From a virus, in the IMG/VR virus record IMGVR_UViG_3300023184_000386, positions 1 through 30,085 of that record: DNA of 30,085 nt. One strand, given 5' to 3'. The notes beneath the pieces are model-generated. The model had not been told where the DNA came from. It saw only the letters and a list, made by a program, of their open reading frames with translations, and ran no database searches. Position numbers and translations under genes: made by a program. Positions 2,995-28,696 of this stretch are shown here, piece after piece. Position 1 is the stretch's first letter, and each line of letters opens with the position of its first letter.

Positions 2995-3693
2995 TTAGGC
3001 TCCTTGCTTGAGTTGTTTGCGCTTGGCCCAACTAGCTGCCACAGCCAATGAAAGTTTTGCTCTTGTTTCTAATTTGACAGGAGGCATTTTTTTTCCTAAG
3101 TGTGCTTTTGATAATTTTAATTTTGATTTGTCGGTATGTTTGTGACCAACGCGACCAATTAACGCATTTGAAATCTTTTTTCGAGTTTCAATGGATCTTT
3201 CCTTGCCCTGCCACGGCCCAGAGCAACCATTCTTAGTCTTTGAAATTTTCTTCTTTGTTTCTTCGCTATGAACTTTACCAAAGAAGTGATTCTTTTCACC
3301 AAGATGGGCATCATGCATTTTTTGTCTGGTTGCTTCTGAATGTTTAACGCCGCGCTTTAAATTTCCGTTGCGTTTTTTTTGTTTGTCAGATTGCTTGTAC
3401 CCAAAGACTCCATCCCCGCCCATAGTCAAGTTGTACCCTGACGGCACAATGGTGTTGTGCTGAATAATCAATTGCTTTTCAAGTTCTTTAAGGCTGTCAA
3501 CATCGGCAATTGCGGATGCTAAAACCGTAATTTCAAAGGACTCTTCCCCATACTTCTGAATTGCTTTTGCCAAAAGCTTGCCACAGCTATTTTTAGAAAA
3601 ACGATGCTCATACCAACGACGATTAACAGATCGTGTTGTTATCCCAATGTAACCCTTGCCATTGGACTTATTTTGAATCAAATATGCTTCCAT
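2995..3693 (-). CDS. GIY-YIG homing endonuclease with NUMOD3 repeats
   Basis: With the start at ATG 3693, overlapping the upstream fibre stop as TGATG, the protein is 232 aa. Residues 4-19 (YLIQNKSNGKGYIGIT) carry the GIY-YIG nuclease core, R25/R26 and the Glu in ELEKQLI (about 70-72) fit the catalytic Arg and Glu, and YNLTMGGDG (87-95) ends the domain. The rest holds repeated Lys-rich NUMOD3-type DNA-binding motifs (about 117-133, 142-156, 168-180, 185-200) with the SEETKKKIS pattern. The gene is visibly AT-richer, with long A/T runs, than both flanking fibre genes, a sign of independent mobility. It leaves the ribosome site of the downstream fibre gene in its own last codons, so expression of that gene survives. 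An upstream in-frame ATG at 3723 lies inside the fibre gene and is less likely. Confidence 0.93.
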   Translation of the reverse strand: MEAYLIQNKSNGKGYIGITTRSVNRRWYEHRFSKNSCGKLLAKAIQKYGEESFEITVLASAIADVDSLKELEKQLIIQHNTIVPSGYNLTMGGDGVFGYKQSDKQKKRNGNLKRGVKHSEATRQKMHDAHLGEKNHFFGKVHSEETKKKISKTKNGCSGPWQGKERSIETRKKISNALIGRVGHKHTDKSKLKLSKAHLGKKMPPVKLETRAKLSLAVAASWAKRKQLKQGA

Positions 3694-8938: not shown

Positions 8939-9985
8939 TCAGCAATTAGCCATTCCGCCGCCACGCCGCTTTGGAACGATAGTTGTAGACTCCCTAGTCT
9001 TCGTCACCGCACCGGGTGCATCAGCAGAGCCAAACATCCCCTTCACCTTATCCACAAGAGGACGGATGTAGTTCATGGGATTCATGGCTTCACGATCAGC
9101 TAGATTTTCAGCCTTCTGGGTGGTGTAGGTGCCCTTATAGCCTTTTGTCTCTTTATCAGACTGAGCATCACCACCATCATTGAGCCTTTTAACACTGCCG
9201 CCCTTCTTGAATGTGCCAGAAAGTTGGTTGATGCTCACAGGAGCCGAAGGCTTTTTACGTCCTTCAGGCATCGCCACGGGACGGCCAGAATCAACAAGCC
9301 CCCCCGTGGCGTAGGCTTTTTTTGCGGAGCCACCTTTTTTAAAGCCACCAGCGTTGCCTTTCTTAACTCCGCCAGTAGTGGTGTTGGTCTTGCCCGGAGG
9401 CGTACCAGCCACATTCCCGTCAACGTAGCTCATCACGCCGCCATTGGCTTTGCGATTGACTTTGCCGCCTTTTTTGAATCCGCCGCCGTTGCCCATCTTC
9501 ACGCCACCACCCGCAGAATACCCGGCAGCGCCCATCGCAACGCCACCCGTCTTCAGCGCCAGCTTGGTGCCTTTGCCGCCTTTATGCTCTTGCGTGTCGT
9601 GCTGCTTGAAGGCTTTTTTGAGCATCGCTTTGTCTTGCGACTCGTCCATCTTTCCGCCTTCAGCCTTGCCGCCTTTTTTCATAACCGGAGCGGGCATGGC
9701 TTGAGCAGCTTGGCGTTGTTTCATCATCTGCGCCATCATCATCGCCTTCCGACGATCATTCATCGACGGACGACCCGGAGCAGCTACAGGTGCGTTAAGC
9801 GCAGGACGGCCAACCAGAGCCGGTGTCCCCGCCAACGCCCCCATCACTCCGCCGTCCATCTTCCTCATCGGCTTGTGACCTTCTTCGCCCTTAGACTTCA
9901 TGGCAACGTGACCACCTTTCTTCAGTTTAAGAATCACCGAAGGCTCAGTGGTCTCCATCTTGACCATTGGTTTGAATTGACCCAT
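8939..9985 (-). CDS. Lys/Gly-rich KKGG-repeat protein
   Basis: I place the start at ATG 9985 (MGQFKPMVKMETTEPS), which has AAGGAG eight bases upstream; the longer frame to 10045 runs into the preceding gene. The 348-aa product is low-complexity and very basic. KKGG occurs five times, and the block GGVK.GN.GGFKKGG occurs twice. GG dipeptides recur throughout, often as GG-V. A Met-rich helix lies at about 85-100 (RRKAMMMAQMMKQRQAAQAM). There are no enzyme motifs. Its place among structural genes and its charge suggest a DNA-associated internal virion protein or an assembly substrate. Its FKKGGKVN is close to KGGAVN in the giant protein encoded upstream. Confidence 0.78.
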   Translation of the reverse strand: MGQFKPMVKMETTEPSVILKLKKGGHVAMKSKGEEGHKPMRKMDGGVMGALAGTPALVGRPALNAPVAAPGRPSMNDRRKAMMMAQMMKQRQAAQAMPAPVMKKGGKAEGGKMDESQDKAMLKKAFKQHDTQEHKGGKGTKLALKTGGVAMGAAGYSAGGGVKMGNGGGFKKGGKVNRKANGGVMSYVDGNVAGTPPGKTNTTTGGVKKGNAGGFKKGGSAKKAYATGGLVDSGRPVAMPEGRKKPSAPVSINQLSGTFKKGGSVKRLNDGGDAQSDKETKGYKGTYTTQKAENLADREAMNPMNYIRPLVDKVKGMFGSADAPGAVTKTRESTTIVPKRRGGGMANC

Positions 9986-9995
9986 TTCGCTCTCC

Positions 9996-10970
9996 TTAAG
10001 CTTGTGTGACGCCAAGAGCGCCAAGACGGGTTGCATTCGGCCCAACAGCCAACGCCGGGAGGGAGATATTCATAATCAGCCGCTTTTGACCGTCGGTTGC
10101 ACTGGACGGCACATACGTCCCGCGCACGTCGCCAGTGGTCGTCGTTGCCGGGTTGGTCGTAACAGCCACCGCCAAAGTGCCAGCGTCCTCAGCCAACGTG
10201 TTGTCCCACCCCGCCCTCGAAATATAGCCGCGATCAATCACGCGAACCGGGAGGCCAATCAGGTCAGTCGTTCCAACCGCTACTGTGACCACAGCACTGC
10301 CAGAAATCGTGATCCCACTGATCTGGAAGAACGCTTTCTTGCCGTTCACAGTGGTCGAAGCAACAGCGCCAGTCGCAATCACTTCGCTCATGGCCTGACC
10401 GTAGTAGTCGTAGCCAGAGATGGTGACGTTCCGGGTGGTCGGCGAACCTGCACCCGTAGTCGTCGCAACAGCACGAGCGCAGTCCAACTGAACAACCGTA
10501 GTTCCATCAGCACGCACCACAGAGCGCGTTCCAGCACCGGCGGTCAGAGTGACTGCGGAGGTGTAGACGCTTGCCGTAGCGATGTTGGTGGTGGACTTTA
10601 CTTCCGGGATCACATCGAACACATAAACACGACCCAACGGGCCAATGCCAACGTCCATGTTCGAAGGGTCTGCAATCGCCGCATTGCCAGACGCATACAT
10701 AGTGGTGCTGGACGCGGTGGACGAGGCGCTCACGGTGTAAGTGCCGGTGGTTCCAGAACCAGTTCCAAAAGCCGTGATGTAGCTCCCAACGGTAACGCTG
10801 GAGCCGGTGATGAATTGACCAACGTACAGAGGGTCTCCGCTCAACATCGCGGTGACCGTCAAAGTGGTGGTGGCGATGGAGCCGGTGAACGTGGCGTTTA
10901 CCGGATTGTTGCCCACGCCCATGTAAGTTTGCGCTGGGCCTAGGTACAGGTCATCTGAAAATTGAGGCAT
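9996..10970 (-). CDS. Putative virion structural protein (beta-rich)
   Basis: This 324-aa protein starts MPQFSDDLYLGPAQTYMGVG after an AAGGAGA site. It is rich in T, S, A, V and G with few charges, and has repeated short beta-like stretches such as TLTVTAML and YTVSASSTASSTTMYA (residues about 30-95), then a more regular domain with DCARAVATTTGAGSPTTRNV and DYYGQAMSEVI (170-210), and a C-terminal part with NISLPALAVGPN. Similar proteins occur just downstream of the capsid gene in environmental phages, as far as I recall. It may be a head decoration, head fibre or neck component. No catalytic motif is visible. Confidence 0.72.
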   Translation of the reverse strand: MPQFSDDLYLGPAQTYMGVGNNPVNATFTGSIATTTLTVTAMLSGDPLYVGQFITGSSVTVGSYITAFGTGSGTTGTYTVSASSTASSTTMYASGNAAIADPSNMDVGIGPLGRVYVFDVIPEVKSTTNIATASVYTSAVTLTAGAGTRSVVRADGTTVVQLDCARAVATTTGAGSPTTRNVTISGYDYYGQAMSEVIATGAVASTTVNGKKAFFQISGITISGSAVVTVAVGTTDLIGLPVRVIDRGYISRAGWDNTLAEDAGTLAVAVTTNPATTTTGDVRGTYVPSSATDGQKRLIMNISLPALAVGPNATRLGALGVTQA

Positions 10971-13161: not shown

Positions 13162-14142
13162 TTAGTTGTTCCTATTTTGACGAGCTTCTTGGGCGTATCG
13201 ACGGATCATTCGGGCGCGTTTCTCGTTGTCATCCCACATACCGGCGTCTTTCATCGCCCTGACTTGATCTGGATTTAGCGTGAAGGTGTTTCTGCCTCCG
13301 CTGGAAGAGGAATTTTCACGCCCACTGCCGACAATGACGCTTTTTGGCCTTCTGTTTGCGGGCCTGTCCACTTCTGAATCTTCGGAGTAGCGGTGAGGCA
13401 GCTTTTTCTGAAGACGGGCGTCCAATTCATCCCAATAATCGGCATCTTTTGGATCCCACCCCTCTTTGGCCATGCGTTTGTCGATGGTCAAAGCAATATC
13501 AGAGTCCTCATCCCCGCCGCTTGGGTCGTACCACGAGTTCCTGTCCATCCAAGAAGCCGCCAGACGCTGTACATCTCGGTCTGGAGCAATCGCCTGTTCC
13601 CGTGGATAAGAAGCGCGGTTTTTCAAGTCCTGCAAAGACTCCGCAGCACGCCTTGCCTCAAACCACATCTCCTGAGCGTTCGCCATGCCCTCGCCATCCG
13701 CCGCCTGTGCCGCCTCGGCAATTTTCATCTTGGCGTATTGGATCCGGACGTTTTGGTCTTCGATTGCTTTGTCGATACGGGCCAGTTCTGAGCCGTGGGT
13801 TTTGACCTCCACAACCGACAACCGCGCCAAAAGGTCTTGGTTCTGACGCTGAAGCTGCTGGAACCGGACGTCTTTCTCCTGCTGCTGTTGACGGTGGTAA
13901 ATTTTTTTGGCTTTTCGTTTATCGCGCCGCGCAGTACGAATGGCCTCGGTGTCGTCTGGGTGGTCTACGCCGCCATCTTCAGGAACAGAGCCACCACCGG
14001 CCATCTTCTCCGTTGAATCCTCCTGAGAGGCGTTCTGGGAGTCCTCCGGAGGCAGATCCATGCCCTCCACCGTCACGCTGCCGTCTTTTTGCTCGTCTAC
14101 AATTAGATTTGGCTCTTCAGCCTTAATTTGTTCGTTGCTCAT
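13162..14142 (-). CDS. Putative scaffolding protein
   Basis: This 326-aa protein is highly charged. The first 75 residues are acidic and disordered-looking (DGSVTVEGMDLPPEDSQNAS). Residues about 80-180 form long helices with coiled-coil character (KRKAKKIYHRQQQQEKDVRF, LQRQNQDLLARLSVVEVK, LARIDKAIEDQNVRIQYAK). The C-terminus is basic and helical (DNEKRARMIRRYAQEARQNR), as in scaffolds that bind capsid subunits through a C-terminal basic helix. Position directly before the capsid genes and directly after the GroES-like gene fits. The ATG overlaps the upstream TGA (ATGA). Assignment rests on composition and gene order, not on a catalytic motif. Confidence 0.72.
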   Translation of the reverse strand: MSNEQIKAEEPNLIVDEQKDGSVTVEGMDLPPEDSQNASQEDSTEKMAGGGSVPEDGGVDHPDDTEAIRTARRDKRKAKKIYHRQQQQEKDVRFQQLQRQNQDLLARLSVVEVKTHGSELARIDKAIEDQNVRIQYAKMKIAEAAQAADGEGMANAQEMWFEARRAAESLQDLKNRASYPREQAIAPDRDVQRLAASWMDRNSWYDPSGGDEDSDIALTIDKRMAKEGWDPKDADYWDELDARLQKKLPHRYSEDSEVDRPANRRPKSVIVGSGRENSSSSGGRNTFTLNPDQVRAMKDAGMWDDNEKRARMIRRYAQEARQNRNN

Positions 14143-14573
14143 ACAAACGCCCTCACTTCTAGTGGGTTGCCGGTAATTTTGGCAATGACTTCATGGTCGT
14201 TGATGATGATGAATTCCACCTTTTCCTCGGTTTCGGGGGTGTTGGGAAGCCTGACCTCCCATCGATCACCCGTCCACTTCGGCACGCGGAGGTAATCTCC
14301 AATCTCACACCACGACCCTTCGGGCCACGGCTCCATCGTGTCGCGTTTTTTGAACGCCAAAGGGCCAATTCCCACCACTTTCCCCACCGGATTCTGCGCT
14401 TTCTCAGTATCTCGGGTTTCTTGAGCCAAAATAATCCCAGAAGCAGTGACTTTTTTCTTTGTCATCCGCAATTGAAGCAGGATCCTAGCTCCAAGAGGTT
14501 TAGCACCGGGGTCTACAGCAGGGAATGCACCCGCCAAATCAGCTTCGTAAGAAGCTACCGGAGTTTCACTCAT
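14139..14573 (-). CDS. GroES-like co-chaperonin (viral Cpn10)
   Basis: This 144-aa protein carries the Cpn10 pattern: PLGARILLQ (26-34), a mobile-loop segment MTKKKVTASGIILAQE (37-52) that includes the hydrophobic IIL tripeptide used to bind GroEL, GKVVGIGP (64-71), IGDYLRVPKW (91-100) and a C-terminal NDHEVIAKI (125-133). It is longer than the usual 95-100 residues because of an N-terminal extension of about 25 residues and a tryptophan-rich insert (WPEGSWCE). T4 gp31 sets the precedent for a phage co-chaperonin used in capsid folding with host GroEL. Its coupling by ATGA to the scaffold gene fits that use here. Whether it closes the chamber alone or helps a host GroES is unknown. Confidence 0.8.
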   Translation of the reverse strand: MSETPVASYEADLAGAFPAVDPGAKPLGARILLQLRMTKKKVTASGIILAQETRDTEKAQNPVGKVVGIGPLAFKKRDTMEPWPEGSWCEIGDYLRVPKWTGDRWEVRLPNTPETEEKVEFIIINDHEVIAKITGNPLEVRAFV

Positions 14574-14886: not shown

Positions 14887-17400
14887 TCAAACTCCTCTGT
14901 TAAGGTTCCGTTGCAATTCATTCTGCAGGTCAATCGCTGATTGAGACTGCTCTTTCTTCAATTTCGCCGTTTCCAACGTCAGATCCAGCGTCTGCATCCG
15001 TTCTTTCGTAAGGTTGTTTTCGGTGTTCATTGCCGCCTTGAATTGATCCTCGCGGTTCTGATCTTGTTGATCTTGCGCCATCTGAGCTTGCTTGAACTGG
15101 ATGTCAGCCTGATCTCTGGCGGCACGCCGTTGGGTCTCGGCCATTGACGCTTGGAGCACCGCTTGCGCCTCGCCATCCATTGCAGCGGGTTGCGGTTTGT
15201 TGAACTGCTGCGCCGCCTGAACAAGTTGCTGGATCTGCGGAAGGATCTGGGCAAACTCCTGCGGCGTGTCCATTTCCATGTGTTTCGCCGCAACAGCCAT
15301 AGCACGATCAATCTCCGGAGCGAGCTTGGAGTCTTCGTACTTTTGTACCTTTACCTTCGCAGGGATCAAAGTGTATTGGTTCATCTTCTGCGTGTACCAC
15401 AGCATCATGTGCTGCTTGATATGTGCAAGCACCTGCGGAATGAACATGGGAGCGATGATCGGGTTCATCCCCAATGCCGGATCCTTGGAGAAGGAAAGAT
15501 GCGACGCAATGTGCGCTAGATGATCCTGACGCGGATACGCAACCGCCATCCGCCCCATCGACATGGCCGCGTTCTCGTCCGCCGAGTGCATCTCCTGCGG
15601 CTTGGCGTACTGAGGCATTAACTCCTGAATGTTGGGGATCTTCATCTGTTTCAACGCACGCCCCAGAACAGCCCGCGCATCAAACATATTCGGGTACTTA
15701 TCAAGGTACGCAATCACCGCTTGCGTCTGAGCCATACGCTGCGTTTCAGAGAAAATGTGCGGATCCGACACCGGCATAATGTCGCTGTTGCGCTTGAAGT
15801 CTTCGCGCTTGACCGGCAACTCGGCAACAATGTCGCCCTTTTTTTGCTCGTCCAGATACCAACGATTCAACCTCTGAAGCACCATCAGCACTCGACGCTG
15901 CGAGTTGTGCAGACGAGCGTGAATGGCGCTGAATACCACCGCCCCTTGCTCAATCAGGGCTTGCGTTGTGCCGACAGGAGCCTGACTTGAAATGTCGGCG
16001 ATTTTTTCTTCTGAGGTTGTGACAACGCCTTTGGCAGCGGTTTCCAAAAATCCCATCAAGGAGAACAGCACTTGCGAAGGAGGATTGAACGGCATGGGGA
16101 AGGCGATCTTCTTAATGTCATCAACCCCCGGAGCGCCCTCAATCTCAACCACCTGAGTGACGTCAACTTGTTGGCTCTGACCGCTGATTCGCGCCCCTTT
16201 GAGCTTGAGCATGGTGGGGGCGTTGTTGATATGAGCCGAATCAAGCAGCGCCCGCAAAGCGCCAGTAAGCGCCGCAGAAAGACCACCAATAAGGTGCGGT
16301 AAGCCAATTGCATACGCACCACGCCACGGGATGAACTTGAATTCAATAAGCCAGTCCAGCTTGGTCAGGGTTTCGTCGCCCTCTTCCCAGTTGCGGTACA
16401 GACCAAGAACTTCGCCCTCCAATTCGTCGATCATCATGATGTACGGGGCCGATTCCCCGTCAGACTTTTTATCGTCCTCAAGCTCCAGCCATGTGTAGAT
16501 GTGAAACACACGACGCAAACCATCCTCACCGTCTTGGTATTGTTTGCCCTCAATCTTGTTGTTGGCTTTCTCAGGGCCGGTGGGTTCTGGCTCCATCGTC
16601 GCCCGGATCACCTCTACGTCCCGGTACAGCCCGCGAGAGATTCGGTTCTTAAATTCCCACTCCGAGATGTTATGAACCTCGGTCACCCGTTGCGCCGTGT
16701 AGAAATTCACCGCACTGAACGGCAGGTACACGTTGTCGATTGGAACGAACTCAGCGCAGGGACGTTTTTTCTGATCATCCCACCACATTTTCAGGAACTG
16801 ACTGCCGCCCAGCGGCAACTGCGCCAGCAACTGCTCCTGCTCGTCGCGGAACTCTTCAATCTGTTCCGTTAGTTGCCAGTTCATGTAGTCGCGTTTGCGC
16901 TCCGCAATATCTGTTTTTTGGTCGGTCACCTCGCCAAGGATGTTTGTCCGCGTCGGGCCATCCGGCGGAAACAGTTCTTTGATTGCGCGAGCGGCAAAGT
17001 CCACGCACGCCTCTGCCATGACCGGGTGAACGACCTTGGACGCGCCCATGAACGTTGCCCCACCCGGAGCGTCGTTGCCAAGACCCGTCCGCCTCAGCCC
17101 GTCCTCGTACTGCTTGTCGCGTTCCTTGCGAGCTTCCTTGTCCTTGCTGATCATGTCCAAGTAACGGGTGGCAATGGAGTTTAGATCGTTGATCTCCAGA
17201 ACGTCCGCAAGGTTCTCGTAGAAGTCGGCGTCCTCTTCTGGCCCCTTTGTCTTGTCCAAAGTTACAACCGCAGAGCCGTCTTCCATCTCCTCTACGTCAG
17301 GGACGTCTTCGTCGAGCATTACCTCCGCACCACCATCCGGCGTCATCTGCAGACCGTCAATGAAACGGTCTGACTCTGGGTCAATTGGAAGTTGTTCCAT
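14887..17400 (-). CDS. Portal protein
   Basis: The 837-aa product has the size and layout of P22-like portal subunits, larger than the 450-550 aa of siphovirus portals. An acidic N-terminus (residues 1-60) precedes the core. Helices at about 85-115 and the segment ARAIKELFPPDGPTRTNIL (136-154) are typical, as are DNVYLPFSAVNFYTAQRVTE (221-240) and WIEFKFIPWRGAYAIG-type residues near 350-365. A long C-terminal tail (about 700-837) is helical and Gln/Lys rich with coiled-coil character, matching the barrel extension of P22 portals. The subunit forms the dodecameric DNA gate and binds the terminase. It starts two bases after the giant gene's stop with only a weak ribosome site, so re-initiation is likely. 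Confidence 0.9.
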   Translation of the reverse strand: MEQLPIDPESDRFIDGLQMTPDGGAEVMLDEDVPDVEEMEDGSAVVTLDKTKGPEEDADFYENLADVLEINDLNSIATRYLDMISKDKEARKERDKQYEDGLRRTGLGNDAPGGATFMGASKVVHPVMAEACVDFAARAIKELFPPDGPTRTNILGEVTDQKTDIAERKRDYMNWQLTEQIEEFRDEQEQLLAQLPLGGSQFLKMWWDDQKKRPCAEFVPIDNVYLPFSAVNFYTAQRVTEVHNISEWEFKNRISRGLYRDVEVIRATMEPEPTGPEKANNKIEGKQYQDGEDGLRRVFHIYTWLELEDDKKSDGESAPYIMMIDELEGEVLGLYRNWEEGDETLTKLDWLIEFKFIPWRGAYAIGLPHLIGGLSAALTGALRALLDSAHINNAPTMLKLKGARISGQSQQVDVTQVVEIEGAPGVDDIKKIAFPMPFNPPSQVLFSLMGFLETAAKGVVTTSEEKIADISSQAPVGTTQALIEQGAVVFSAIHARLHNSQRRVLMVLQRLNRWYLDEQKKGDIVAELPVKREDFKRNSDIMPVSDPHIFSETQRMAQTQAVIAYLDKYPNMFDARAVLGRALKQMKIPNIQELMPQYAKPQEMHSADENAAMSMGRMAVAYPRQDHLAHIASHLSFSKDPALGMNPIIAPMFIPQVLAHIKQHMMLWYTQKMNQYTLIPAKVKVQKYEDSKLAPEIDRAMAVAAKHMEMDTPQEFAQILPQIQQLVQAAQQFNKPQPAAMDGEAQAVLQASMAETQRRAARDQADIQFKQAQMAQDQQDQNREDQFKAAMNTENNLTKERMQTLDLTLETAKLKKEQSQSAIDLQNELQRNLNRGV

Positions 17401-17402
17401 AA

Positions 17403-20400
17403 CTATCTCGCTAATTGGTTAGGCTTGCGTTGACGCAAACTAGTTCTTGTTAGGGCAAGCCCACCTGCGCGTTTATTGCGCTCAAGGATGTTCAGGTTCT
17501 TTGGATCGAATACGACGAAGTTGCTAGTGCCTGCACCGCCAGCGCGGGAGCCTTGGTCTAGGTATTTGATGCCGGGGATGCCTGCTTCGCGCATTGCTTC
17601 AGAAGCGTATTTGGCACCCCTGATTCCCGCCAACCGTTCATAGGCCCATTGTCCGTTCATATTTGAGTCAACCGATATTCCTGTTGGACGACCCAAAACA
17701 TCTGTTTTTACCAAATCTTGCAGAGTTTTTTGTATTTCAGGATTTTGATCTTTTAATGGTTTATTAAAATCCAGCATCTTGGCTATCTGCTCGTCGGGGA
17801 GGTCTACTTTGTAGAGGTTGCCTTGTTTAGATTCTTTATAGTCTTTGAACAATGTAGCTAATTTGTTTTGGTCAAGGTTTCTAGCTTCAATGTTGGCATA
17901 TTGAAAACTTTTAGCTGCTTTTTCTGGCGAAACATTTGCTCTTGATTGCCGCATAAACTCTATTTGAGCTTCACGGTCAAACGGAATTCCTCGTTTAGCA
18001 GATTCATATTCAAGATCTAAAGCGCCTTTGTGCGCCAAAGTATCTCTGAAACCTGTTGCTGTACTTTTATTCTCAGCCAGATACAAGCCATGCCCGTAAG
18101 CCTGCGCCCCTTCGCCAGTACCGATCTTGCTTGAGTCAAACTCACCTAACGGGTTTTTGGCAGTCGGCGGGAAACGGTGCGGAGAGCCATGCCATACATC
18201 CATCGGCAAGATGCCGCCAGATTTCACCATGTAGTTCTCAAGCCCACGCGCCAGAATTTCAGGCGCAGACTTAGCTGTTGCAATAACGCCTTTCGCTAAC
18301 GGGCCAACAAAAGGGGCCACGCTGGTCGCCATGTCCGCCCCAAGCAAGAACAGATCGGCTTCATCTTGCGCCTTCTTCGACGCAGGATAACGCTCATCCA
18401 TAATGCTTGTTGGCGCAGTCATGTTCTGCCGTTGAGCGGCAAACTTTTTTGCCATCAACGGATTGACGGTGGCGGGGAGCATCGCTGCTTCAATCTCTGC
18501 CTGCGTTGGCTCGCCTCCTTCAGCTTTCTTTACCGGCTTGCCCCACACCGCCATCTGCATTGCGTCTAGGTTGACGGGGCCACCGCGCTTCATTCCAGAA
18601 TCAGGATCTCCGCCAATGATGTTGCCGCGTGCATCGTATTTCAGGCGCTTGCCTTCAGAGTTAATTACATTGTGCAGCCGCTGGATGTCTTCTCCAGTCA
18701 GCCATTCGTGATCAGGAACATATTCTCCCGTAGCCTCAATACCGCGCTGTTCGTTGACGTTGAATACGTCCCCGTAGCGGCGTAGGCCAGCATTCTGAGG
18801 ATCACCTACACTACTCCACTTGCCTGACTTCACGAAGTCCTGCACATAGGGCAGGTACGCCTCGTTGGGGGCGCGGTTGGACTTGCCTTTGATTTGGGTG
18901 ATTCTTTGCATAGTTTCTGACTCTGGGTATATCTTTGCCGCCTGCTGTATAGCTTGCTCTTCAGGCATTCCTTCGCCCAGCAAGCGTTGAACAAGGAAAC
19001 CCATTTGGGCTTCTCTTTTTTCTGGAGTAAGCGTTTTTGACGCCCCAACCTCTATCGTTGCATGAGGTTCATTCTTCGCGTCACGCAAGGAATAAACCTC
19101 GGCATCGCCCGATTTAATTGCATCCCAGCCACCCAGACCATATCCGCTTGAACCGCCGCCCTCTGTAGGCTCGTAGCCCCGGACAGAGTGGCCCATTGCG
19201 TCAGACTCTGCCTTGAACTGTCCCGGCTTGTTCAACAGCACCCAGCGCATCCCTGTGTCTTTGTATTCCTTGTGAACATCTGTATTCGCCGCATCTGCAA
19301 GACGAGCCTGCTTTATATTGCCCGTCCTCCACTCATTGATCTTGGCCACCCGCTCTACAGCCTGCGGGACGGACAGCCTAGCCAACGCTTCGGGCTTGAG
19401 CAGCAGTTCTCGCGGCAGGCCAGACGCCGGGTTAGTCGCGTTGCGCAGTTCGTCAATAAGGTGGGGGAAGCCCAGCGTAGAAATATGCGGGTCATTATTA
19501 AAACCCGGCTGAGTAGAATTGTTGAGGCCATACAACGGAGTGTCAGGGGATAATTTATTTATAAACTCAAATCCCGGCTTGCCGGTCATGTTGCTGGAGC
19601 CAAAGTTCTGAAATTTCTCAGCCGGGATGGAGTTGATCATTTTGTCAGAGGCATCTTCCCAGTTCTGCGCTAACCGGCTTTCTCCATAGCCCCATTTTTC
19701 ATTATTGCCCGCAGCAAACTCTTGGCGCTTCAGATCAAGTGCATCAGTTGGATTAACTTGCGGTGCGTCAAAATGCAGCGTCCCCCTCTCAGCCAATGCC
19801 CTGATTGGGTCTTCTGGCGTGCCCATCTCGTTCTTGACGTAGCGGGTTAGCTGCTTGTCGATGAAGTTGTTAAATGCAATGTTACGATCCATCTCGGCAA
19901 TAGATCCCTGAACCACCGGGATACGAGCAGCATGACGCCCCGGAGTTCTTGCCTCTTGCTCCATCAAATCAGCCAACTCTGCCTCAAACATCTTCTTGTC
20001 ATCAGCGGCATATCTGTTCGACTTCAATTGATCAAGCGCCTTCGTCCCTTCAGGCAGAAAGTTTCCGCCCTTGTTCTTGACTACCGGCAGCATCATGCCC
20101 GTACTCATCATGTATTCTTCAAACAACTTTGCAGCGGTTGGGGTTAGCGACTTTGCGCCACTAACAGCCGCTCCAGCTATCTTTGGCACGCCCTTGACAA
20201 TCCCCTTGGCCAACGCGGGAAGACTTGTTATGCCCTGAGCAATAGCCACCGCATTTCCGCCAGTCATCCCAGCACTAAACTCTGGCGAGTCATTAATATG
20301 CTCGCGCAGCAGATTTTGTATGTCGTCAGTCGTTGGCAATGCCTGAATACCAGCAGGAAGATCCACAAACGAATTAGGCTTAAACTCTTGATATAAAGAC

Positions 20401-23400
20401 GCCACATCCCCAAACAACCCCGGAATCTGCGAGCCATACCCAGCCAACGCACCAGCAGCGCCCTGAGCCATCCCTTTTAGGCTTCTATCACTTATGACCC
20501 TTCGGCGGGCTTCCTGTTCAGCCGCCAACCGGGCACGGAAGTCCCGCTCAAACTGACTTTCGGGCGGCATATTGCCGTATCTTGGCAACCCTGCCGTTGA
20601 CGGCCTAGTCTGGGCTTTTGATTGCGCTATAACGTCAAGGATATCCGCGTTAGTGCCTGAAGCCGCCCCTCCGTCGGCAAAACGAAACTTGATGTTTGCG
20701 CCACCCCCGCCTTGAGGTTTCCCAAAGCCAGCCTTCGATATTCCGCCAAACTGTTTGTGCTGAACCCTCTTGTTCAACACAGCCATCTGCATGGCATCTT
20801 GGTTAACAGCGCCGCCCTTTGCATAATTCTTCATGGCGTCGATCAGATCCTGATGCGTTGTCTTCTCTCCGCCCAGCGCATCCCATATTGCATGGTGGGT
20901 CAGGTGCTGGTAATGCGGATCAAGCGAAGGATCAATTTTTAGATCCATGTTCTTTTGACGCGCAGCAAGACGGTCTACAGCCTCTCGTCCACCCAGACCC
21001 TTGCCACGACTCAGCATTGCTCCAGCAGACGCCGTAGGCATGGGCATTCCGCTCGTATGCAACCCAATCTGGCGAGCATCGAACGTGGGCAGATCCCCTC
21101 GGCCAAGCAAGGATCCAATGAAGCCAGACTTGGCGGCGGCAATCCCTTTCAACCGTTCAGCAAAGTCCCTGTAGTCGTTTGCATTTCCAGAGATTGCAAG
21201 ATTTAATTCTGGCGTCATTGAAGGAATTGTTGTGACCGCGTTTGTCATCTGGTCAACAAGTTGGTTCTGCTTTCCAAACGGAGCAAACTTCTGACGAAGG
21301 TCTTCTAGAGACTTGGGATCTATCTCCCCCTTCTGCGCGGCGTCAAGATACCGCTGGCCAGCAGGCGAGCCAAGCCATGTAGCAAACGCGCCCTCTGGCC
21401 TCACCTCTTGCGCGTTGGGAACCTTCAGGCCAGTCTTGGTAGCGGTTGAATGGGACAGCCCTCCGCGACCAATGCTCGACTGGGTGATGAGATAAGCCTT
21501 AATCAGATCACGATCATTAAGGTCACCGGCAGCAGCCCTCTTCGCCTGCTCCTTCATGAACTGGCCATACCCAGCCTGCACATAATCAGGAACAATCGTT
21601 ATCGGAACGTCTTTCTTGACGTCCTGCAAGGCTCGCCATTCCCAATCAGATATCTTGGTGGCGACTGGATCAATATACTCAACAACAGACTTGACCGCCT
21701 TTTTAATATTTCCACCCTTGCCACGTTTCTGAATCTTCTGGCCCATCACAGCCATGTTCATTGCGTCTTGGTTAACGTAGCCGCCGTGAGCCTTGCTGAG
21801 GTCTGGCTGCGAGATGTCGTAAGTGCCTTGGTTGCCAATCGCGCTCTTCACAGCGTTGGGATTGTAGGACACCACCTCAGACAACTCGCCGTCACGGTAC
21901 TGCATCAGCCCGTCATAGCCCTGCGCCTGTGCGCGGCTCTGAACCTGCTTGCCTATGTAGCCCTTCTCCTCATAAGCCTTCTCAACCATGCGGAGGGCTT
22001 TGTCTTCATCCATCCCAAGCTTGGTCAGCGCCTCAACCATCGGGTCGCCATGCGTCCCCTCAATGATCAGCGGGTTCTTTATCTGGGCGTAGACGGGAAG
22101 CATATTGCCGCCCTCTTGGCCGGGGAGGACGTTGCCCGCCTGCCGGTTGCGCAAGAACTGCTGACCCGTGTCAGCTTGGTAATCGCTGCGCAGCATCGCG
22201 GCAATCGCCTCATCGTTGGGCGAGCCGCTGTAGCCGCTTGCGTTGGCCGTGCTAGGCGTCAGGTACGTCCCAGAGCCAAGTGCGCCCTCTTTGCTAGGTT
22301 TGAAGCGGCGGATGGCCTCAACACCCTTCCCGCCCTCAGTCGCAGTCGTGCCGTGGTACAGGCGCATCGGCGCTTTGCTCGGCTCAAGGAACTTGGCAAG
22401 GTTGGCTTCGCGTTCTAACGCAGGCAAGCTGCTGTCAGCCATTATTCGCTTACCAATGTTTATTGCGCCCTTGACAATCTTGCCACCACCGGCCTTCTTC
22501 TCAGGCTCCGCAGCCAGCAAATCTGGTGCAGCAACCCCCATCAATGCGGCAGTGGCAGCGTCCCTGCGGAATGGGTCAAAGGCAGCAAAGCGGGAGCGAA
22601 TGTTGTCGGGGTTCATGCTGATTGTGTGTTCTTTGCCAATGTTTAATTCATGGCTTCTAAACTGAGGCGTGTGGCGAATCTCATCAATCCCAAAGTTCTT
22701 CATGAAGTCACCAGCGGCTACACCACCAGAAACGATGTCTCCAGTAAATGGGTCGTACAAGCCACTTTCGCTGCCCGTCTTCTTGACGGCGTTGAACACA
22801 TCACGCGCAGGTATGGCGTCGCCGTAATATTGAACAGCTTCGTATACTGGATTTGCATCACCGCCAAGTTCTCTGAACTCATCGAGCGCTTCATTGAACT
22901 TTGCGGTATACGGTGTATCCACATAAGCGTCAGTCGCCTCGTCGTAACGCTCAAAGGGGCCAATCCTCACAGGGTTTGACTCAGGAGCATCAAGGTGAAT
23001 GGACTTGTCGGAGCGAACTTTCAAGGGGTAGACAACGCCAAGATTGTCAGCGTCAACCGTGTTTCGCAGAATAATTTCCTGCTGGCGCGGAGTTAGCGTC
23101 TCATCCCTCATGCGACTATGAATCTTGCGAAAGTCTTTATCTCTTGCCTCCATGCCGCGCTCAACCCTACCAAGCGGGTCGGGGCCATAAATGCTTGCGT
23201 AGTTGCGACTTGCGTCCTCTGCTGAATCAGTTGAGTAGATGCCTTTGCCTGCATGACTCTCGGTTGAGCCAACGCTTGGGTCAAGTTTCTTGATGTCGCG
23301 AAATGACCCGTGATAGGTGTCGCGGTCAAAGCCCATTGCCTTTGCTCGTTGCTCGGAAGTATTGTTCTTGGGAAGGCCCAGCCCACCCTTGGCTGGAGGT

Positions 23401-24584
23401 AGAGCGGCACGTTCTTGCGCCAGCTTGAGAGCCTCGGCTTGGGGTGCGTCAGCAAACAGCATCTTGACGCCAGCCTTGATGCCCTTGGCCAGACCGCCAC
23501 CACCGAAGCCCTCGACGGATCCGCCGTCCCTGTAACCCTCACGCGACAAATGGCGGATGTAGTCGTCGGTCAAATCTTGGCTGGGAAGACCTTCTCCCTT
23601 TACGCCCAAAGCGAGATCGTAGTATCCCGGCCCTTGGCGCTCCGGGTTGTCCTTCTTAAATTTCTCGTGCCAGTCAGGCAAGTACACCTCATTGGGCGTG
23701 GGCTTCATATTCACACCCAAGTCCTTGCCCTTAATGAGGGTAGGGAACCCCGGATGCAGGTCGGGCCTAAACTCCGACTCCTTCTCCAACTGGAACAGTC
23801 GCGGGCCAGCCGCAAACGTTGGGACATCGCCACCATGCTCGGTGTGCAACAACGTTGGCTCTGTCTCGCGCTTGAGGATGTTAGTAGGCTTGAAGATGAC
23901 ACCCTTGCCACTCTTCTCGCCACCAAGCGCTACGCCGCCTTTGCTGGGAGCAGTTCCCTGCCCCATCATTACGTCAGCCAGTGCGGCACGCTTCTCAAAC
24001 GTGTCCGCCTCTTTCCATATCTTGGGGTCGCGGATGTCAACGCCAGCCCCAAAGGTCAGTTCAAGGTTGCGGTTGATCTTGCCAGCCAGTTCCTCAGACA
24101 GGTTGCCTTGCTTCATGGCGTCAAGGAACCCGCGCTTCAGTTTATCGAACACCACAGGATTGGTCTTGAGTTGGTTTGCGGAACCAAGCATCGTTGTCCA
24201 CGCAGTGTCAGGGGCCGTCAGGTTCTTGAGTCGAGCCGCCGTGCCCTCGTCCATCACGCCCCACACCTTGCCCGCGTAGGCAGGGTCGGCCTCGCTGATT
24301 GCCGAGAAGGGAGCGCCGCCAATATTGCCTCCGCCCACACGGGTGCGGTCAGCCTGCGTGGTGGTCGTGCGCCTCATGCCCTTCTCGCGCATTCGGCCTA
24401 ACGCCTCAGACGCCTTCATCTGCTCTTGGGACTTGATGAGTTCAGCCGCCTTGCGACCAGCCGCCGCACGTTCAGCAGCCGTCAACTCCTGCGACGCCAG
24501 AGATGCATTGCGCATCATACCGAGACCGCCCTCAATTGCAGCGCCAACAACTTTGCCAACTTTTGTTATTGTGCCCATGATCAC
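17403..24584 (-). CDS. Giant polyvalent protein with three ADP-ribosyltransferase-like domains
   Basis: This 2393-aa protein (GTG 24584; ATG 24578 is also possible) is an array of modules. Residues 1-350: unrecognised, helical start. 420-671: ART-like domain 1 (TYHGS 423-427, GKGIYSTDSAEDASRNYA 446-463, NIRSRFAAFDP 661-671). 739-920: ART-like domain 2 (RLYHGT, GSGTYLTPSTANASGY). 965-1255: unknown module (AYLITQSSIGRGGL, DPHYQHLTHHAIWDAL). 1570-1990: PcfJ-like module (GMRWVLL, EVYSLRDAKNEPHATIEV, RITQIKGKSNRAP). 2128-2370: ART-like domain 3, the clearest (VWHGSPHRF, KIGTGEGAQAYGHGLYLAE, GIPGIKYLD). Hydrophobic Gly/Ala-rich stretches (about 1370-1396, 1437-1478, 2078-2110) separate them. Polyvalent proteins of this kind are thought to be packaged and injected to disarm host defences. 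Placement between terL and portal agrees, but injection is inferred. ART assignment is by the H-Y motif pattern; the catalytic Glu cannot be fixed by eye. Confidence 0.8.
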   Translation of the reverse strand: MIMGTITKVGKVVGAAIEGGLGMMRNASLASQELTAAERAAAGRKAAELIKSQEQMKASEALGRMREKGMRRTTTTQADRTRVGGGNIGGAPFSAISEADPAYAGKVWGVMDEGTAARLKNLTAPDTAWTTMLGSANQLKTNPVVFDKLKRGFLDAMKQGNLSEELAGKINRNLELTFGAGVDIRDPKIWKEADTFEKRAALADVMMGQGTAPSKGGVALGGEKSGKGVIFKPTNILKRETEPTLLHTEHGGDVPTFAAGPRLFQLEKESEFRPDLHPGFPTLIKGKDLGVNMKPTPNEVYLPDWHEKFKKDNPERQGPGYYDLALGVKGEGLPSQDLTDDYIRHLSREGYRDGGSVEGFGGGGLAKGIKAGVKMLFADAPQAEALKLAQERAALPPAKGGLGLPKNNTSEQRAKAMGFDRDTYHGSFRDIKKLDPSVGSTESHAGKGIYSTDSAEDASRNYASIYGPDPLGRVERGMEARDKDFRKIHSRMRDETLTPRQQEIILRNTVDADNLGVVYPLKVRSDKSIHLDAPESNPVRIGPFERYDEATDAYVDTPYTAKFNEALDEFRELGGDANPVYEAVQYYGDAIPARDVFNAVKKTGSESGLYDPFTGDIVSGGVAAGDFMKNFGIDEIRHTPQFRSHELNIGKEHTISMNPDNIRSRFAAFDPFRRDAATAALMGVAAPDLLAAEPEKKAGGGKIVKGAINIGKRIMADSSLPALEREANLAKFLEPSKAPMRLYHGTTATEGGKGVEAIRRFKPSKEGALGSGTYLTPSTANASGYSGSPNDEAIAAMLRSDYQADTGQQFLRNRQAGNVLPGQEGGNMLPVYAQIKNPLIIEGTHGDPMVEALTKLGMDEDKALRMVEKAYEEKGYIGKQVQSRAQAQGYDGLMQYRDGELSEVVSYNPNAVKSAIGNQGTYDISQPDLSKAHGGYVNQDAMNMAVMGQKIQKRGKGGNIKKAVKSVVEYIDPVATKISDWEWRALQDVKKDVPITIVPDYVQAGYGQFMKEQAKRAAAGDLNDRDLIKAYLITQSSIGRGGLSHSTATKTGLKVPNAQEVRPEGAFATWLGSPAGQRYLDAAQKGEIDPKSLEDLRQKFAPFGKQNQLVDQMTNAVTTIPSMTPELNLAISGNANDYRDFAERLKGIAAAKSGFIGSLLGRGDLPTFDARQIGLHTSGMPMPTASAGAMLSRGKGLGGREAVDRLAARQKNMDLKIDPSLDPHYQHLTHHAIWDALGGEKTTHQDLIDAMKNYAKGGAVNQDAMQMAVLNKRVQHKQFGGISKAGFGKPQGGGGANIKFRFADGGAASGTNADILDVIAQSKAQTRPSTAGLPRYGNMPPESQFERDFRARLAAEQEARRRVISDRSLKGMAQGAAGALAGYGSQIPGLFGDVASLYQEFKPNSFVDLPAGIQALPTTDDIQNLLREHINDSPEFSAGMTGGNAVAIAQGITSLPALAKGIVKGVPKIAGAAVSGAKSLTPTAAKLFEEYMMSTGMMLPVVKNKGGNFLPEGTKALDQLKSNRYAADDKKMFEAELADLMEQEARTPGRHAARIPVVQGSIAEMDRNIAFNNFIDKQLTRYVKNEMGTPEDPIRALAERGTLHFDAPQVNPTDALDLKRQEFAAGNNEKWGYGESRLAQNWEDASDKMINSIPAEKFQNFGSSNMTGKPGFEFINKLSPDTPLYGLNNSTQPGFNNDPHISTLGFPHLIDELRNATNPASGLPRELLLKPEALARLSVPQAVERVAKINEWRTGNIKQARLADAANTDVHKEYKDTGMRWVLLNKPGQFKAESDAMGHSVRGYEPTEGGGSSGYGLGGWDAIKSGDAEVYSLRDAKNEPHATIEVGASKTLTPEKREAQMGFLVQRLLGEGMPEEQAIQQAAKIYPESETMQRITQIKGKSNRAPNEAYLPYVQDFVKSGKWSSVGDPQNAGLRRYGDVFNVNEQRGIEATGEYVPDHEWLTGEDIQRLHNVINSEGKRLKYDARGNIIGGDPDSGMKRGGPVNLDAMQMAVWGKPVKKAEGGEPTQAEIEAAMLPATVNPLMAKKFAAQRQNMTAPTSIMDERYPASKKAQDEADLFLLGADMATSVAPFVGPLAKGVIATAKSAPEILARGLENYMVKSGGILPMDVWHGSPHRFPPTAKNPLGEFDSSKIGTGEGAQAYGHGLYLAENKSTATGFRDTLAHKGALDLEYESAKRGIPFDREAQIEFMRQSRANVSPEKAAKSFQYANIEARNLDQNKLATLFKDYKESKQGNLYKVDLPDEQIAKMLDFNKPLKDQNPEIQKTLQDLVKTDVLGRPTGISVDSNMNGQWAYERLAGIRGAKYASEAMREAGIPGIKYLDQGSRAGGAGTSNFVVFDPKNLNILERNKRAGGLALTRTSLRQRKPNQLAR
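18195..18314 (-). repeat. Inter-module spacer copy 2 in giant protein
   Basis: Residues 2091-2130 (PFVGPLAKGVIATAKSAP, then RGLENYMVKSGGILPMDVW), leading straight into the VWHGS motif of ART-like domain 3. It is a diverged copy of the spacer at 20082-20222. Confidence 0.6.
18531..18590 (-). repeat. Boundary motif copy 3 in giant protein (GGPVNLDAMQMAV)
   Basis: Residues 1999-2018, closing the PcfJ-like module before the spacer that leads to ART-like domain 3. It has Leu for Gln at one position and is followed by KPVKKAEGG. Confidence 0.8.
20082..20222 (-). repeat. Inter-module spacer copy 1 in giant protein
   Basis: Residues 1455-1501 (LPALAKGIVKGVPKIAG, then KLFEEYMMSTGMMLPVV), preceding the PcfJ-like module. 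It pairs with residues 2091-2130, which have the same order: hydrophobic 'LAKG', a gap, then an 'L..YM...G..LP' helix. Confidence 0.6.
20763..20819 (-). repeat. Boundary motif copy 2 in giant protein (KGGAVNQDAMQMAV)
   Basis: Residues 1256-1274, closing the unknown module and opening the spacer before the PcfJ-like module. It differs from copy 1 at several synonymous codon positions, so the protein motif is kept while the DNA has drifted. Confidence 0.8.
21726..21788 (-). repeat. Boundary motif copy 1 in giant protein (GGYVNQDAMNMAV)
   Basis: Residues 933-953 of the giant protein, between ART-like domain 2 and the unknown module. This is copy 1 of three GG-x-VN-(Q/L)-DAM-x-MAV blocks, each followed by a short basic stretch and another GG. 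Confidence 0.8.
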
Positions 24585-26068
24585 ACCGCGTAAGGGTTCT
24601 CCCGCTTCGGGCGGGTGTCGTAGAAGTCGTCGTCATCATAACGAGGCTCCGGGTTGATGTCGAGGAAGCTCATGTCCTTCAATAACCGAATCGCTTGCGT
24701 TGCGCTATCGACATAGTCATCGTTCGCCGAATCAGGGAACGCGCAGATCTGGCTCAGGAAGCCCTCGCACCAGTCCTTGACGAAGCCCTTTCGCTTACTC
24801 GACTCCGGGAGCCAGACGCGCCCAGTCGCAAAGATGGACGCGGTTATCTGGAGCCGTTGCATCTTGTCCGCCCTTCCGGGGTTGTACCCACGCACAGGCA
24901 GATGAGCCGAACGCAGTTCCTGAATCAGGGAGATGCCTGCCGCCTTGTCCTCGACCAGTATCAGGTCTGGGCGCTTGGCGTCCTTGCCCTCGCCATACGA
25001 CACCTTCCACTCCTCTAGAACCTTTGGCTTGAGCAGGGGGAAGGTCAGGTGTTCAGCCCAGCAGTCGATGAGCAGGACAGACATAGGCCCGTCCATTGGC
25101 TTGAAGACGCCCCATGTAGTCATGGCAGTCGGGTCGTTGTACTCCTTCTCGCTGAAGGCGCAGTCGTAGGACTGGACGATGAACTCAAACTTGGGGAATG
25201 GCCGGTCATGCGGGTACAGCTTGAACATATCGCGGGACACGACCTTGCCGTCCTCCAGATCGACCAGTTCGCCCATCACCTCCTGCTGGTACAGCTTTGA
25301 CCCCTTGTACTGCTCCAACTGCCCCTTGAAGGTCGGCGCAAGGTTTGCAGCGTTGTCGTGCGTGGTGGCGCGGTCAATAACCACATCGTCCCCCTCCCGT
25401 CCAACGAGGTCGAGGATCAGGTCTTTCGGTCTCGGCGTCGTAGTGACAATGACCCTCGGCTGCTTGCCTAGCCGCAGGCCCATCATCATCATGTCCCACG
25501 CCTCGCCCTCGCCCAAGTACTGGAAGGCCGCGAGTTCGTCGGCCCAGCACCAGTGGAACTGCGGCCCCCGCAGCCGCTCGTAGGCGTCGGCGCTGATCCC
25601 CCGGATGATGGATCCGTTACTCAGCCTGATCTGGTGGTCTTGCTTGTTGTAGTCCACGACCAGATCCTTGGGGATGCAGGCCAGCAGGCCAGACTGCCCC
25701 TCAAAGCAGGTGTGCTTGATGTCGTTAGATGTTGGAGCCAGTACCAGTCCCCGCGTCTCCGGGTGCGTCCAGCACCACCACCACAAAGCCTCAGCGGCGC
25801 TGCGGGTCTTGCCCGCTCCCCGGCCTGCCAGCATCATCCAGATCAGGTAGTCCTGCTCAAGCGGCGGCGGGACTTGATAACGGTGGGCGGTCGCCAACCA
25901 TTTGGTATGTGCCAGTATCGCAAGGCGCGAGTGCAGTGGCTGGCCATCGAACGCCTTTGCCATCTCCGCATCAAGGAACTGGCCTAAACCACTAGATGTA
26001 GTGTCAGTGTCGGTTAAAACCCGTGTTTTGGGAGACTTGCCACTACCGGTAGTGGTTTCAGCCAACAC
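24581..26068 (-). CDS. terL: Terminase large subunit
   Basis: The 495-aa motor of DNA packaging. Walker A is AGRGAGKTRS (81-90), Walker B FHWCWADELA with D177 and E178 (171-180), and the coupling motif TTTPRP lies at 209-214. The nuclease domain shows QSYDCAF (D302), LILVEDKAAG (E373/D374) and a late acidic cluster DDYVDSATQA (450-459), the three metal-ligand regions of the RNase H-like fold. It translocates DNA through the portal and cuts concatemers. The start at 26068 is a GTG inside the end of terS (a 'GTGTTGGC' context). The gene ends at a TGA overlapping the GTG start of the giant gene. All key residues are present, so it should be functional. Confidence 0.97.
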   Translation of the reverse strand: MLAETTTGSGKSPKTRVLTDTDTTSSGLGQFLDAEMAKAFDGQPLHSRLAILAHTKWLATAHRYQVPPPLEQDYLIWMMLAGRGAGKTRSAAEALWWWCWTHPETRGLVLAPTSNDIKHTCFEGQSGLLACIPKDLVVDYNKQDHQIRLSNGSIIRGISADAYERLRGPQFHWCWADELAAFQYLGEGEAWDMMMMGLRLGKQPRVIVTTTPRPKDLILDLVGREGDDVVIDRATTHDNAANLAPTFKGQLEQYKGSKLYQQEVMGELVDLEDGKVVSRDMFKLYPHDRPFPKFEFIVQSYDCAFSEKEYNDPTAMTTWGVFKPMDGPMSVLLIDCWAEHLTFPLLKPKVLEEWKVSYGEGKDAKRPDLILVEDKAAGISLIQELRSAHLPVRGYNPGRADKMQRLQITASIFATGRVWLPESSKRKGFVKDWCEGFLSQICAFPDSANDDYVDSATQAIRLLKDMSFLDINPEPRYDDDDFYDTRPKRENPYAV

Positions 26069-27957: not shown

Positions 27958-28163
27958 TAGCCGCGCTCCTTCATCATCACCATCACTTCAAGCCACGCTC
28001 GGTGCGCCTCGCCAGCATCCTCAATCCGCTGGCCCTTGTAGATCATGCCGTCTTTGTCCAGCACAAGCACCGGCTCCGGTGCGCCGCAATTGAAGCAGAT
28101 GCGGTTTGAAGGCTCAATGTTTGCCCAAAGACTTGTTCCTTCCCGTTCCATTTTCTCGCTCAT
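27957..28163 (-). CDS. Small protein with single CxxC
   Basis: Starts at ATG 28163 (MSEKMEREGTSLWANIEPSN), overlapping the HNH gene stop as ATGA, with AGGAG six bases upstream. The 68-aa product holds one CxxC (residues 23-26, CFNC) followed by a beta-like stretch (PVLVLDKDGMIYKGQ) and a helical end (EAHRAWLEVMVMMKERG). With only one Cys pair it would need to dimerise or use other ligands to hold zinc. Function unknown. Confidence 0.66.
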   Translation of the reverse strand: MSEKMEREGTSLWANIEPSNRICFNCGAPEPVLVLDKDGMIYKGQRIEDAGEAHRAWLEVMVMMKERG

Positions 28164-28696
28164 GGTTTCTCCTGTGTGGTGGGGGAGAGCCAAGAGTATC
28201 TTTTCCCAAGTTTGATTTTGCTCACGACCGTTGTAGACAGGCCGAGTTCTTTCGCAATCTCAAGCTGAGATATTTTCCCAAGGCGCTCCCGTACTGCCTG
28301 AACCTTGTCTGCGGGTAGCAGGCGCGGATCTCTGTGCTTTTTAACTTTGTCCATCATGTTGTCCGCGTCCGTACCTAGAAACAGGTGGGCCGGGTTAACG
28401 CAGGGCGGATTGTCGCAACGATGGCACACGCGCATTTCTCCGGGTTCTCCGTTGGCAACAATCCAAGCGGCTCGGTGGGCTTGCATATGCCGCCCTAGAT
28501 ACACCGCATGACCATATCCAGCGCGGTACTTTGTGCCCTTCCATAGCCAGCAGTCCCCCGTCCTGTCCACCTTGCTCCAAAAGTAGTCTGCGGCCTTCAT
28601 GCACCAAGGTAGATGCGCTGCCTTGCCGCCACGGTTCATAACCCGCTGACAACTTGTGCAAGTCCACGGCTCCCTAGTCCACGCCGTATTTTTCAT
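28160..28696 (-). CDS. HNH endonuclease with C-terminal HTH
   Basis: This 178-aa protein has three parts. Residues 13-32 (CTSCQRVM...HLPWC) form a Cys/His zinc-binding start. Residues 46-118 are an HNH_3-type nuclease: CWLWKGTKYRAGYGHA, AHRAAW (73-78), CHRCDNPPCVNPAHLFLG (91-108) and the closing N113 of the HNH triad. Residues 143-164 (SQLEIAKELGLSTTVVSKIK) are a helix-turn-helix for site recognition. This is the plan of free-standing phage homing endonucleases; HNH proteins near terminase genes can also aid packaging, but about 2 kb separate it from terS. The ATG overlaps the previous stop (ATGA). Confidence 0.92.
   Translation of the reverse strand: MKNTAWTREPWTCTSCQRVMNRGGKAAHLPWCMKAADYFWSKVDRTGDCWLWKGTKYRAGYGHAVYLGRHMQAHRAAWIVANGEPGEMRVCHRCDNPPCVNPAHLFLGTDADNMMDKVKKHRDPRLLPADKVQAVRERLGKISQLEIAKELGLSTTVVSKIKLGKRYSWLSPTTQEKP

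What the first reader, a model, noticed from the sequence alone, without database searches (positions are those of the whole stretch)
17403..24584. A 2393-aa multi-effector (polyvalent) protein carrying three separate ADP-ribosyltransferase-like domains, placed between terL and portal
Seen: three distinct 'x-(Y/W)-H-G-(S/T)' entries followed by 'G-x-G-(I/T/L)-Y' and later motifs, at residues about 423, 742 and 2130, plus a PcfJ-like module and an unknown module. Known: polyvalent proteins of phages and conjugative elements combine such domains and are thought to be delivered with the DNA to neutralise host defence. Inference: this phage packages one giant protein that delivers several different effectors at once. 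Three ART-type domains of different subtype in one chain are unusual, and the position among head genes argues for packaging.
Basis: partly seen in the sequence, partly recalled or inferred. Interest (0 to 1): 0.78.

Follow-up and report, generated by a model that had tools for sequence, protein, structure and literature searches.

The report
Shuffled phage effector string, conserved connectors
A phage, probably from freshwater, carries one giant protein made of several probable host-acting modules strung together, and its relatives carry the same modules rearranged around short, conserved connector peptides, which suggests a plug-and-play cargo system whose connectors were not described in the papers I could search.

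Summary
The 2393-aa ORF lies on the minus strand between terL and portal and carries three ADP-ribosyltransferase-like (ART) regions plus a PcfJ module. ART2 passes Pfam ART-PolyVal. ART3 matches ART-PolyVal by fold among predicted viral structures, with no solved-structure match. ART1 is supported by sequence only. Several ARTs per chain are already known (up to 12, Iyer 2017), so that part is ordinary.

The new part lies between the domains. Among 80 portal relatives, every locus that reaches upstream of the portal has one or two long ORFs in this slot, with very variable module content. Modules meet at short basic Gly-Gly connectors. One, [KR]GGxVNxDAMxMAV, occurs three times here. Across relatives it has 18 internal copies in 18 different contexts, and it also ends many cargo ORFs. 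Copies differ mainly at synonymous sites. Sharp homology edges cluster at Gly-Gly connectors (56% versus 23%, z=11). In the relative L073, DNA blocks of mostly 88-98% identity are rearranged, with breakpoints at or near connectors.

Best reading: a polyvalent effector string, probably packaged and injected, built by cassette shuffling at standard connectors. Whether connectors are cargo tags, tolerant linkers or recombination joints is open.

The parts
17403..24584 (-). polyvalent cargo ORF, 2393 aa
   Evidence: slot conserved in relatives
23535..24536 (-). module N (residues 17-350), unknown family, in 32 of 72 slot ORFs
23445..23531 (-). GG junction with basic head, residues 352-380 (RDGGSVEGFGGGGLAKGIKAGVKMLFAD)
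22515..23372 (-). ART1 (residues 405-690), probable ART
   Evidence: fold not confirmed (73, 78)
22425..22496 (-). GG junction with head KIVKGAINIGKRIM, residues 697-720
21795..22412 (-). ART2 (residues 725-930), ART-PolyVal
21711..21791 (-). connector A copy 1 (residues 932-958)
20823..21713 (-). module M4 (residues 958-1254), unknown; 95% DNA-identical and transposed in L073
20742..20822 (-). connector A copy 2 (residues 1255-1281)
20091..20588 (-). module M5 (residues 1333-1498), Gly/Ala-rich, unknown
18669..20084 (-). PcfJ-family module (residues 1501-1972)
18513..18590 (-). connector A copy 3 (residues 1999-2024)
18210..18512 (-). module M7 (residues 2025-2125), unknown
17472..18206 (-). 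ART3 (residues 2127-2371), ART-PolyVal-like fold
17406..17477 (-). C-terminal GG tail, class D (residues 2370-2393), 98.7% DNA-identical in L073 behind a different module
24581..26068 (-). terL, upstream border of the slot
14887..17400 (-). portal, downstream border of the slot

Best explanation
This is a phage polyvalent protein: a single chain of effector modules (three probable ARTs, a PcfJ-like module and several unknown modules) made from a cargo slot between terL and portal. It is probably packaged in the head and injected with the DNA to act on host targets. The string is assembled in evolution from exchangeable modules joined by short basic Gly-Gly connectors, and recombination preferentially joins modules at these connectors. 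Shown here: module content, slot position in relatives, shuffling, enrichment of breakpoints at connectors, and protein-level conservation of the main connector. Inferred: packaging, injection, enzymatic activity, host targets, and what the connector peptide does.
For: Slot filled by one or two long ORFs in relatives. 35 arrangements of the window's modules among 72 non-redundant slot ORFs. Protein homology edges within 25 aa of basic GG connectors 56% versus 23% in shifted controls, z=11; DNA breakpoints 25% versus 12% within 12 aa, z=5. Window versus L073: blocks of mostly 88-98% DNA identity rearranged, with breakpoints at or near connectors. Connector A: 18 internal copies in 18 contexts, dN 0.22 against dS 1.8. 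Tails occur with the slot, not with the ART3 domain: 3 of 6 versus 0 of 50. Domain evidence. Precedent: PMC5512222, PMC9503650.
Against: No virion, activity or infection data. About half of breakpoints are not at connectors, and the unfiltered edge test was weaker (29% versus 22%). Motif and filters were set after seeing the data, and the proteins are related. ART1 fold unconfirmed. Order inversion at high DNA identity was seen in one pair only.
Confidence: 0.72

Rival explanations
1. The connectors are cargo-loading tags. Each module kept its own head-binding peptide when genes fused, giving several contacts with capsid or core protein per chain, as with encapsulin targeting peptides.
For: The same motif sits between modules and at extreme C-termini. 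Its core is conserved as peptide in unrelated contexts. Only one other window protein, the Lys/Gly-rich P0009 encoded after the capsid gene, is rich in KGG motifs over a comparable length. Encapsulin cargo precedent with a motif between domains and at the C-terminus (PMC8346489); P1 anchor-protein precedent (PMC12810830).
Against: No interaction evidence. 12 of 72 slot ORFs have no GG in the last 45 residues, and tail sequences differ between classes. The last residues of classes A, B and E are explained by overlap with the next gene's start. Tag A is not significantly amphipathic.
Confidence: 0.22
2. The connectors are only recombination joints or relics. Exchange near the portal start left copies of old C-termini inside the chain, and the peptide itself does little beyond being a tolerated linker.
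For: Connector DNA itself moved as a 90-nt block at 95.6% identity. Breakpoints cluster at connectors. Short boundary sequences are a proposed route to phage mosaicism (PMC3029335).
Against: Connector A copies are near synonymous saturation yet conserved in protein, which a pure DNA-level relic would not keep. RecT, ERF and YqaJ families were not found in 12 relatives, although other recombinases were not tested.
Confidence: 0.3
3. The connectors are proteolytic maturation sites, so the chain is cut into separate effectors in the head or the host.
For: Repeated Gly-Gly at module borders; polyvalent proteins are predicted to be processed, often by their own metallopeptidases (PMC5512222).
Against: No peptidase domain matched in this chain. 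No Peptidase_S78 or Clp protease in 12 related records (the Peptidase_S77 search had no working control). C-terminal copies have nothing to release. Host or unknown proteases are not excluded.
Confidence: 0.1
4. The ORF is a structural head protein, such as a core or scaffold, rather than cargo.
For: Constant position beside the portal gene.
Against: Very different length and module content between relatives with similar portals. Caulobacter phage RW and Roseobacter phage CRP-901 have no long ORF between terL and portal.
Confidence: 0.06

Closest known systems
Phage polyvalent proteins (Iyer et al. 2017, PMC5512222)
   Same: Very long multidomain protein beside head genes, with ARTs and other effector-type domains combined in one chain
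   Different: No metallopeptidase domain matched here; portable GG connectors at module borders and chain ends, which a text search of that paper for 'linker' and 'repeat' did not turn up
ART-PolyVal (PF18760)
   Same: ART2 is a member; ART3 and ART1 families match it
   Different: Window copies of ART1 and ART3 score below the curated cut-off on their own
PcfJ-like proteins (PF14284), e.g. phage DSL-LC04 slot protein
   Same: Same slot and about 37% identity over the module
   Different: The window copy is divergent and has HSV where the family consensus has HCV
Encapsulin targeting peptides (PMC8346489)
   Same: Short motif at C-terminus and, in one cargo family, also between domains
   Different: Different sequence; no evidence of shell binding here
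Phage P1 Dar proteins (PMC12810830)
   Same: Large head-packaged anti-restriction proteins recruited through anchor proteins
   Different: No Dar homologs identified; connectors not described there
Boundary sequences at phage mosaic junctions (discussed in PMC3029335)
   Same: Short conserved sequences at module junctions proposed to promote recombination
   Different: Here they lie inside one reading frame and are conserved as peptide

Membership tests
Polyvalent protein | several domains of disparate predicted activity in one chain | tested here: met
   ARTs plus PcfJ plus unknown modules
Polyvalent protein | encoded beside virion/packaging genes | tested here: met
   between terL and portal
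Polyvalent protein | delivered into the host with DNA | not testable with these tools
   needs virion proteomics or injection assay
ART-PolyVal (PF18760) | profile match above curated cut-off | tested here: met
   ART2 59.6 bits against cut-off 31.2
ART-PolyVal (PF18760) | ART3 belongs to the same fold family | tested here: met
   26 of 41 family members match; Foldseek to ART-PolyVal models; window copy alone below cut-off
ART-PolyVal (PF18760) | ART1 belongs to the same fold family | tested here: inconclusive
   4 of 9 members match, hhalign E 1.8e-6 to ART2; model poor, no fold match
ART-PolyVal (PF18760) | NAD+-dependent transferase activity | not testable with these tools
   needs assay
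PcfJ (PF14284) | profile match | tested here: met
   9 of 11 family members match, best 3.4e-11; window copy itself does not
Encapsulin-type cargo-loading peptide | peptide directs cargo into an HK97-fold shell | not testable with these tools
   works-like hypothesis only; no sequence relation claimed
Self-processed polyvalent protein | peptidase domain in the chain | tested here: not met
   no peptidase match in the window protein

The most novel reading that the evidence does not exclude
The GG connectors are a standard cargo-loading code: any effector module that gains the head and tail peptides is packaged, so a phage clade swaps injected effectors like cartridges in one slot between terL and portal.
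Probability: 0.2. Interest if true: 0.87.

Novelty: new variant of a known kind. Interest (0 to 1): 0.6.

Why it matters
How phages choose which large proteins to pack and inject is little known outside a few models such as T4 and P1. A conserved portable peptide that marks module borders and chain ends in a hypervariable cargo slot gives a direct handle: fuse it to a reporter and ask whether it is packaged. It also gives an anchor for finding new anti-host effectors in environmental phages without relying on domain homology.

Tried and rejected
Three ARTs as the novelty: rejected, since up to 12 per protein are known. PDB profile searches for ART2, ART3, M4, PcfJ and N: no meaningful hits. 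Foldseek of the ART1 model: no match. tblastn of the connector in isolated phages: no match. Prohead and Clp protease families in 12 relatives: none, with the Peptidase_S77 control failing. RecT, ERF and YqaJ: none. C-terminal KQLRKRHG, EERPL and RRRYG as peptide tags: not accepted as such, because these residues overlap or encode the next gene's ribosome-binding site and start. The first homology-edge test with unfiltered edges gave a weaker effect (29% versus 22%); edges were then restricted to sharp non-collinear ones, so the size of the effect depends on that choice. Host assignment: only four MAG contigs, labelled Opitutae (two), Thiobacillus and beta proteobacterium, too weak to use. Freshwater origin is my impression from relatives' sources, not established for this record.

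Full report
What was checked. The window is a whole 30,085-base IMG/VR virus record. The ORF at 17403-24584 on the minus strand is real and uninterrupted, 2393 aa, between terL and portal. Downstream come GroES, capsid and tail-type genes.

Domains. ART2 is a clear ART-PolyVal. ART3 is supported by its family (26 of 41 members), by a confident model (pLDDT 89.6) and by Foldseek matches to ART-PolyVal proteins in the predicted viral library; it has no significant solved-structure match. ART1 shares YHGS and GxYxTxSxxDAS with ART2 (hhalign E 1.8e-6), and 4 of 9 relatives match ART-PolyVal, but its model is poor. The PcfJ module is supported by its family (9 of 11 members). Modules N and M4 were searched as families without a match; M5 and M7 gave no convincing family match from the window sequence. 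Multiple ARTs in one polyvalent protein, and ARTs beside terminase and portal genes, are already described (PMC5512222, PMC9503650).

The slot. A portal-based scan found 281 relatives, of which 80 were fetched. Each locus that reaches upstream of the portal carries one or two long ORFs there; where terL is also held, they fill most of the terL-portal interval, up to 2597 aa. Isolated relatives differ: Caulobacter phage RW and Roseobacter phage CRP-901 have no long ORF between terL and portal, phage DSL-LC04 has a PcfJ-like protein there, and Pelagibacter phage HTVC027P has two hypothetical proteins there.

Shuffling. Among 72 non-redundant slot ORFs the window's own modules occur in 35 arrangements. 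In the closest informative relative, L073, terL is about 93% identical in protein sequence, while the aligned block that holds the portal is only 67% identical in DNA. Inside the slot, blocks of mostly 88-98% DNA identity are rearranged: window residues 954-1261 match L073 1980-2287, the connector at 1257-1286 matches L073 924-953, and the last 25 codons match at 98.7% behind a different module. This is the only pair in the set with order inversion at that identity.

Connectors. A motif [KR]GGxVNxDAMxMAV occurs at residues 934, 1257 and 2001 and in relatives, both between modules and at C-termini. A DNA pattern scan of 2.9 million viral contigs gave 19 hits: 18 lie in slot-type ORFs and one (L093) looks like chance. 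Ten contigs not seen before carry the motif at the C-terminus, nine of them with the portal directly downstream by homology (L088 matched terL only); their DNA there is nearly identical, so they count as few independent events. The 18 internal copies sit in 18 different contexts (12 upstream and 13 downstream families). Replacement divergence is low and synonymous divergence near saturation (dN 0.22, dS 1.8), so the peptide is conserved rather than recently copied. A second element, KIVKGGLxxxKKLL, is found at the N-terminus of some slot ORFs (10 of 68) and inside others, where 20 of 22 copies closely follow GG. Three of four heads tested are amphipathic at nominal p<0.05; connector A is not.

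Breakpoints. Sharp protein homology edges lie near basic GG connectors far more often than in shifted controls (56% versus 23% within 25 aa at 60% identity or more; unfiltered edges 29% versus 22%). DNA breakpoints show the same trend (25% versus 12% within 12 aa). The motif and filters were set after seeing the data and the proteins are related, so z-scores are indicative.

A deflationary point. The last residues of tail classes A, B and E overlap or encode the ribosome-binding site and start of the next gene. Their conservation is at least partly translational coupling, not a peptide tag. The GGxVNxDAMxMAV core lies upstream of this overlap, and class C tails end before the portal's start region.

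Control. ART3 homologs are common in other phages, often as stand-alone proteins. Of 56 complete, non-redundant ART3 ORFs, 50 show no portal or terL of this kind nearby and none of these carries a recognised tail; 3 of the 6 near such genes do. Many loci are fragments, so absence of a neighbour is not proof. Within that limit, tails follow the slot, not the domain.

Mechanism. Best supported: a polyvalent effector string, probably packaged and injected, evolving by module exchange at standard connectors. Why the connector peptide is conserved is open. A cargo-loading role is attractive by analogy with encapsulins, where one cargo family has a motif between domains and at the extreme C-terminus (PMC8346489), and with P1, where anchor proteins are needed for packaging of the other Dar proteins (PMC12810830). 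Cleavage is less likely, since no peptidase matched in the chain and no Peptidase_S78 or Clp protease was found in 12 relatives. None of these functions is shown.

Novelty. The protein is a member of a known kind. The portable connectors and their link to module borders were not found in the papers searched, a limited library. Overall: a new variant of a known kind.

Noticed in passing
window 8939-10045 (-): P0009: Lys/Gly/Met-rich, probably disordered protein with 11 KGG motifs, encoded after the capsid gene and found in about 40 relatives; a candidate internal head protein.
   Followed up: partly
L001:2642-5572, L002:7422-10463: Slot ORFs with a module containing HSHPADSGRAFSxSPSSxD, which looks like a JAB/Mov34-type metallopeptidase by eye; Pfam gave no match for L001.
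   Followed up: partly
L003:2083-7488: C-terminal module with VPGLGTKTAS...DLHMIR, reminiscent by eye of helix-hairpin-helix DNA glycosylases; Pfam found only ART-PolyVal in this ORF.
   Followed up: partly
window 2995-3723 (-) and 28160-28696 (-): Homing endonuclease (phrog_314, 5.5e-40) in the tail region and HNH endonuclease (phrog_59, 2.7e-26) upstream of terS.
   Followed up: no
window 14139-14573 (-): Phage GroES co-chaperonin (phrog_3188, 2.6e-10), also annotated downstream of the portal in related isolates.
   Followed up: no
window 18669-20084 (-): The PcfJ module here lacks the Cys of the family's HCVG motif (it reads HSVRG), so it may be catalytically altered.
   Followed up: no
L108:7615-11746 (Pelagibacter phage HTVC027P): The two slot ORFs carry a different repeated Gly-Gly motif (DGGRIGYS, VGGRVGYADG), hinting that other lineages have their own connector dialects.
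   Followed up: no
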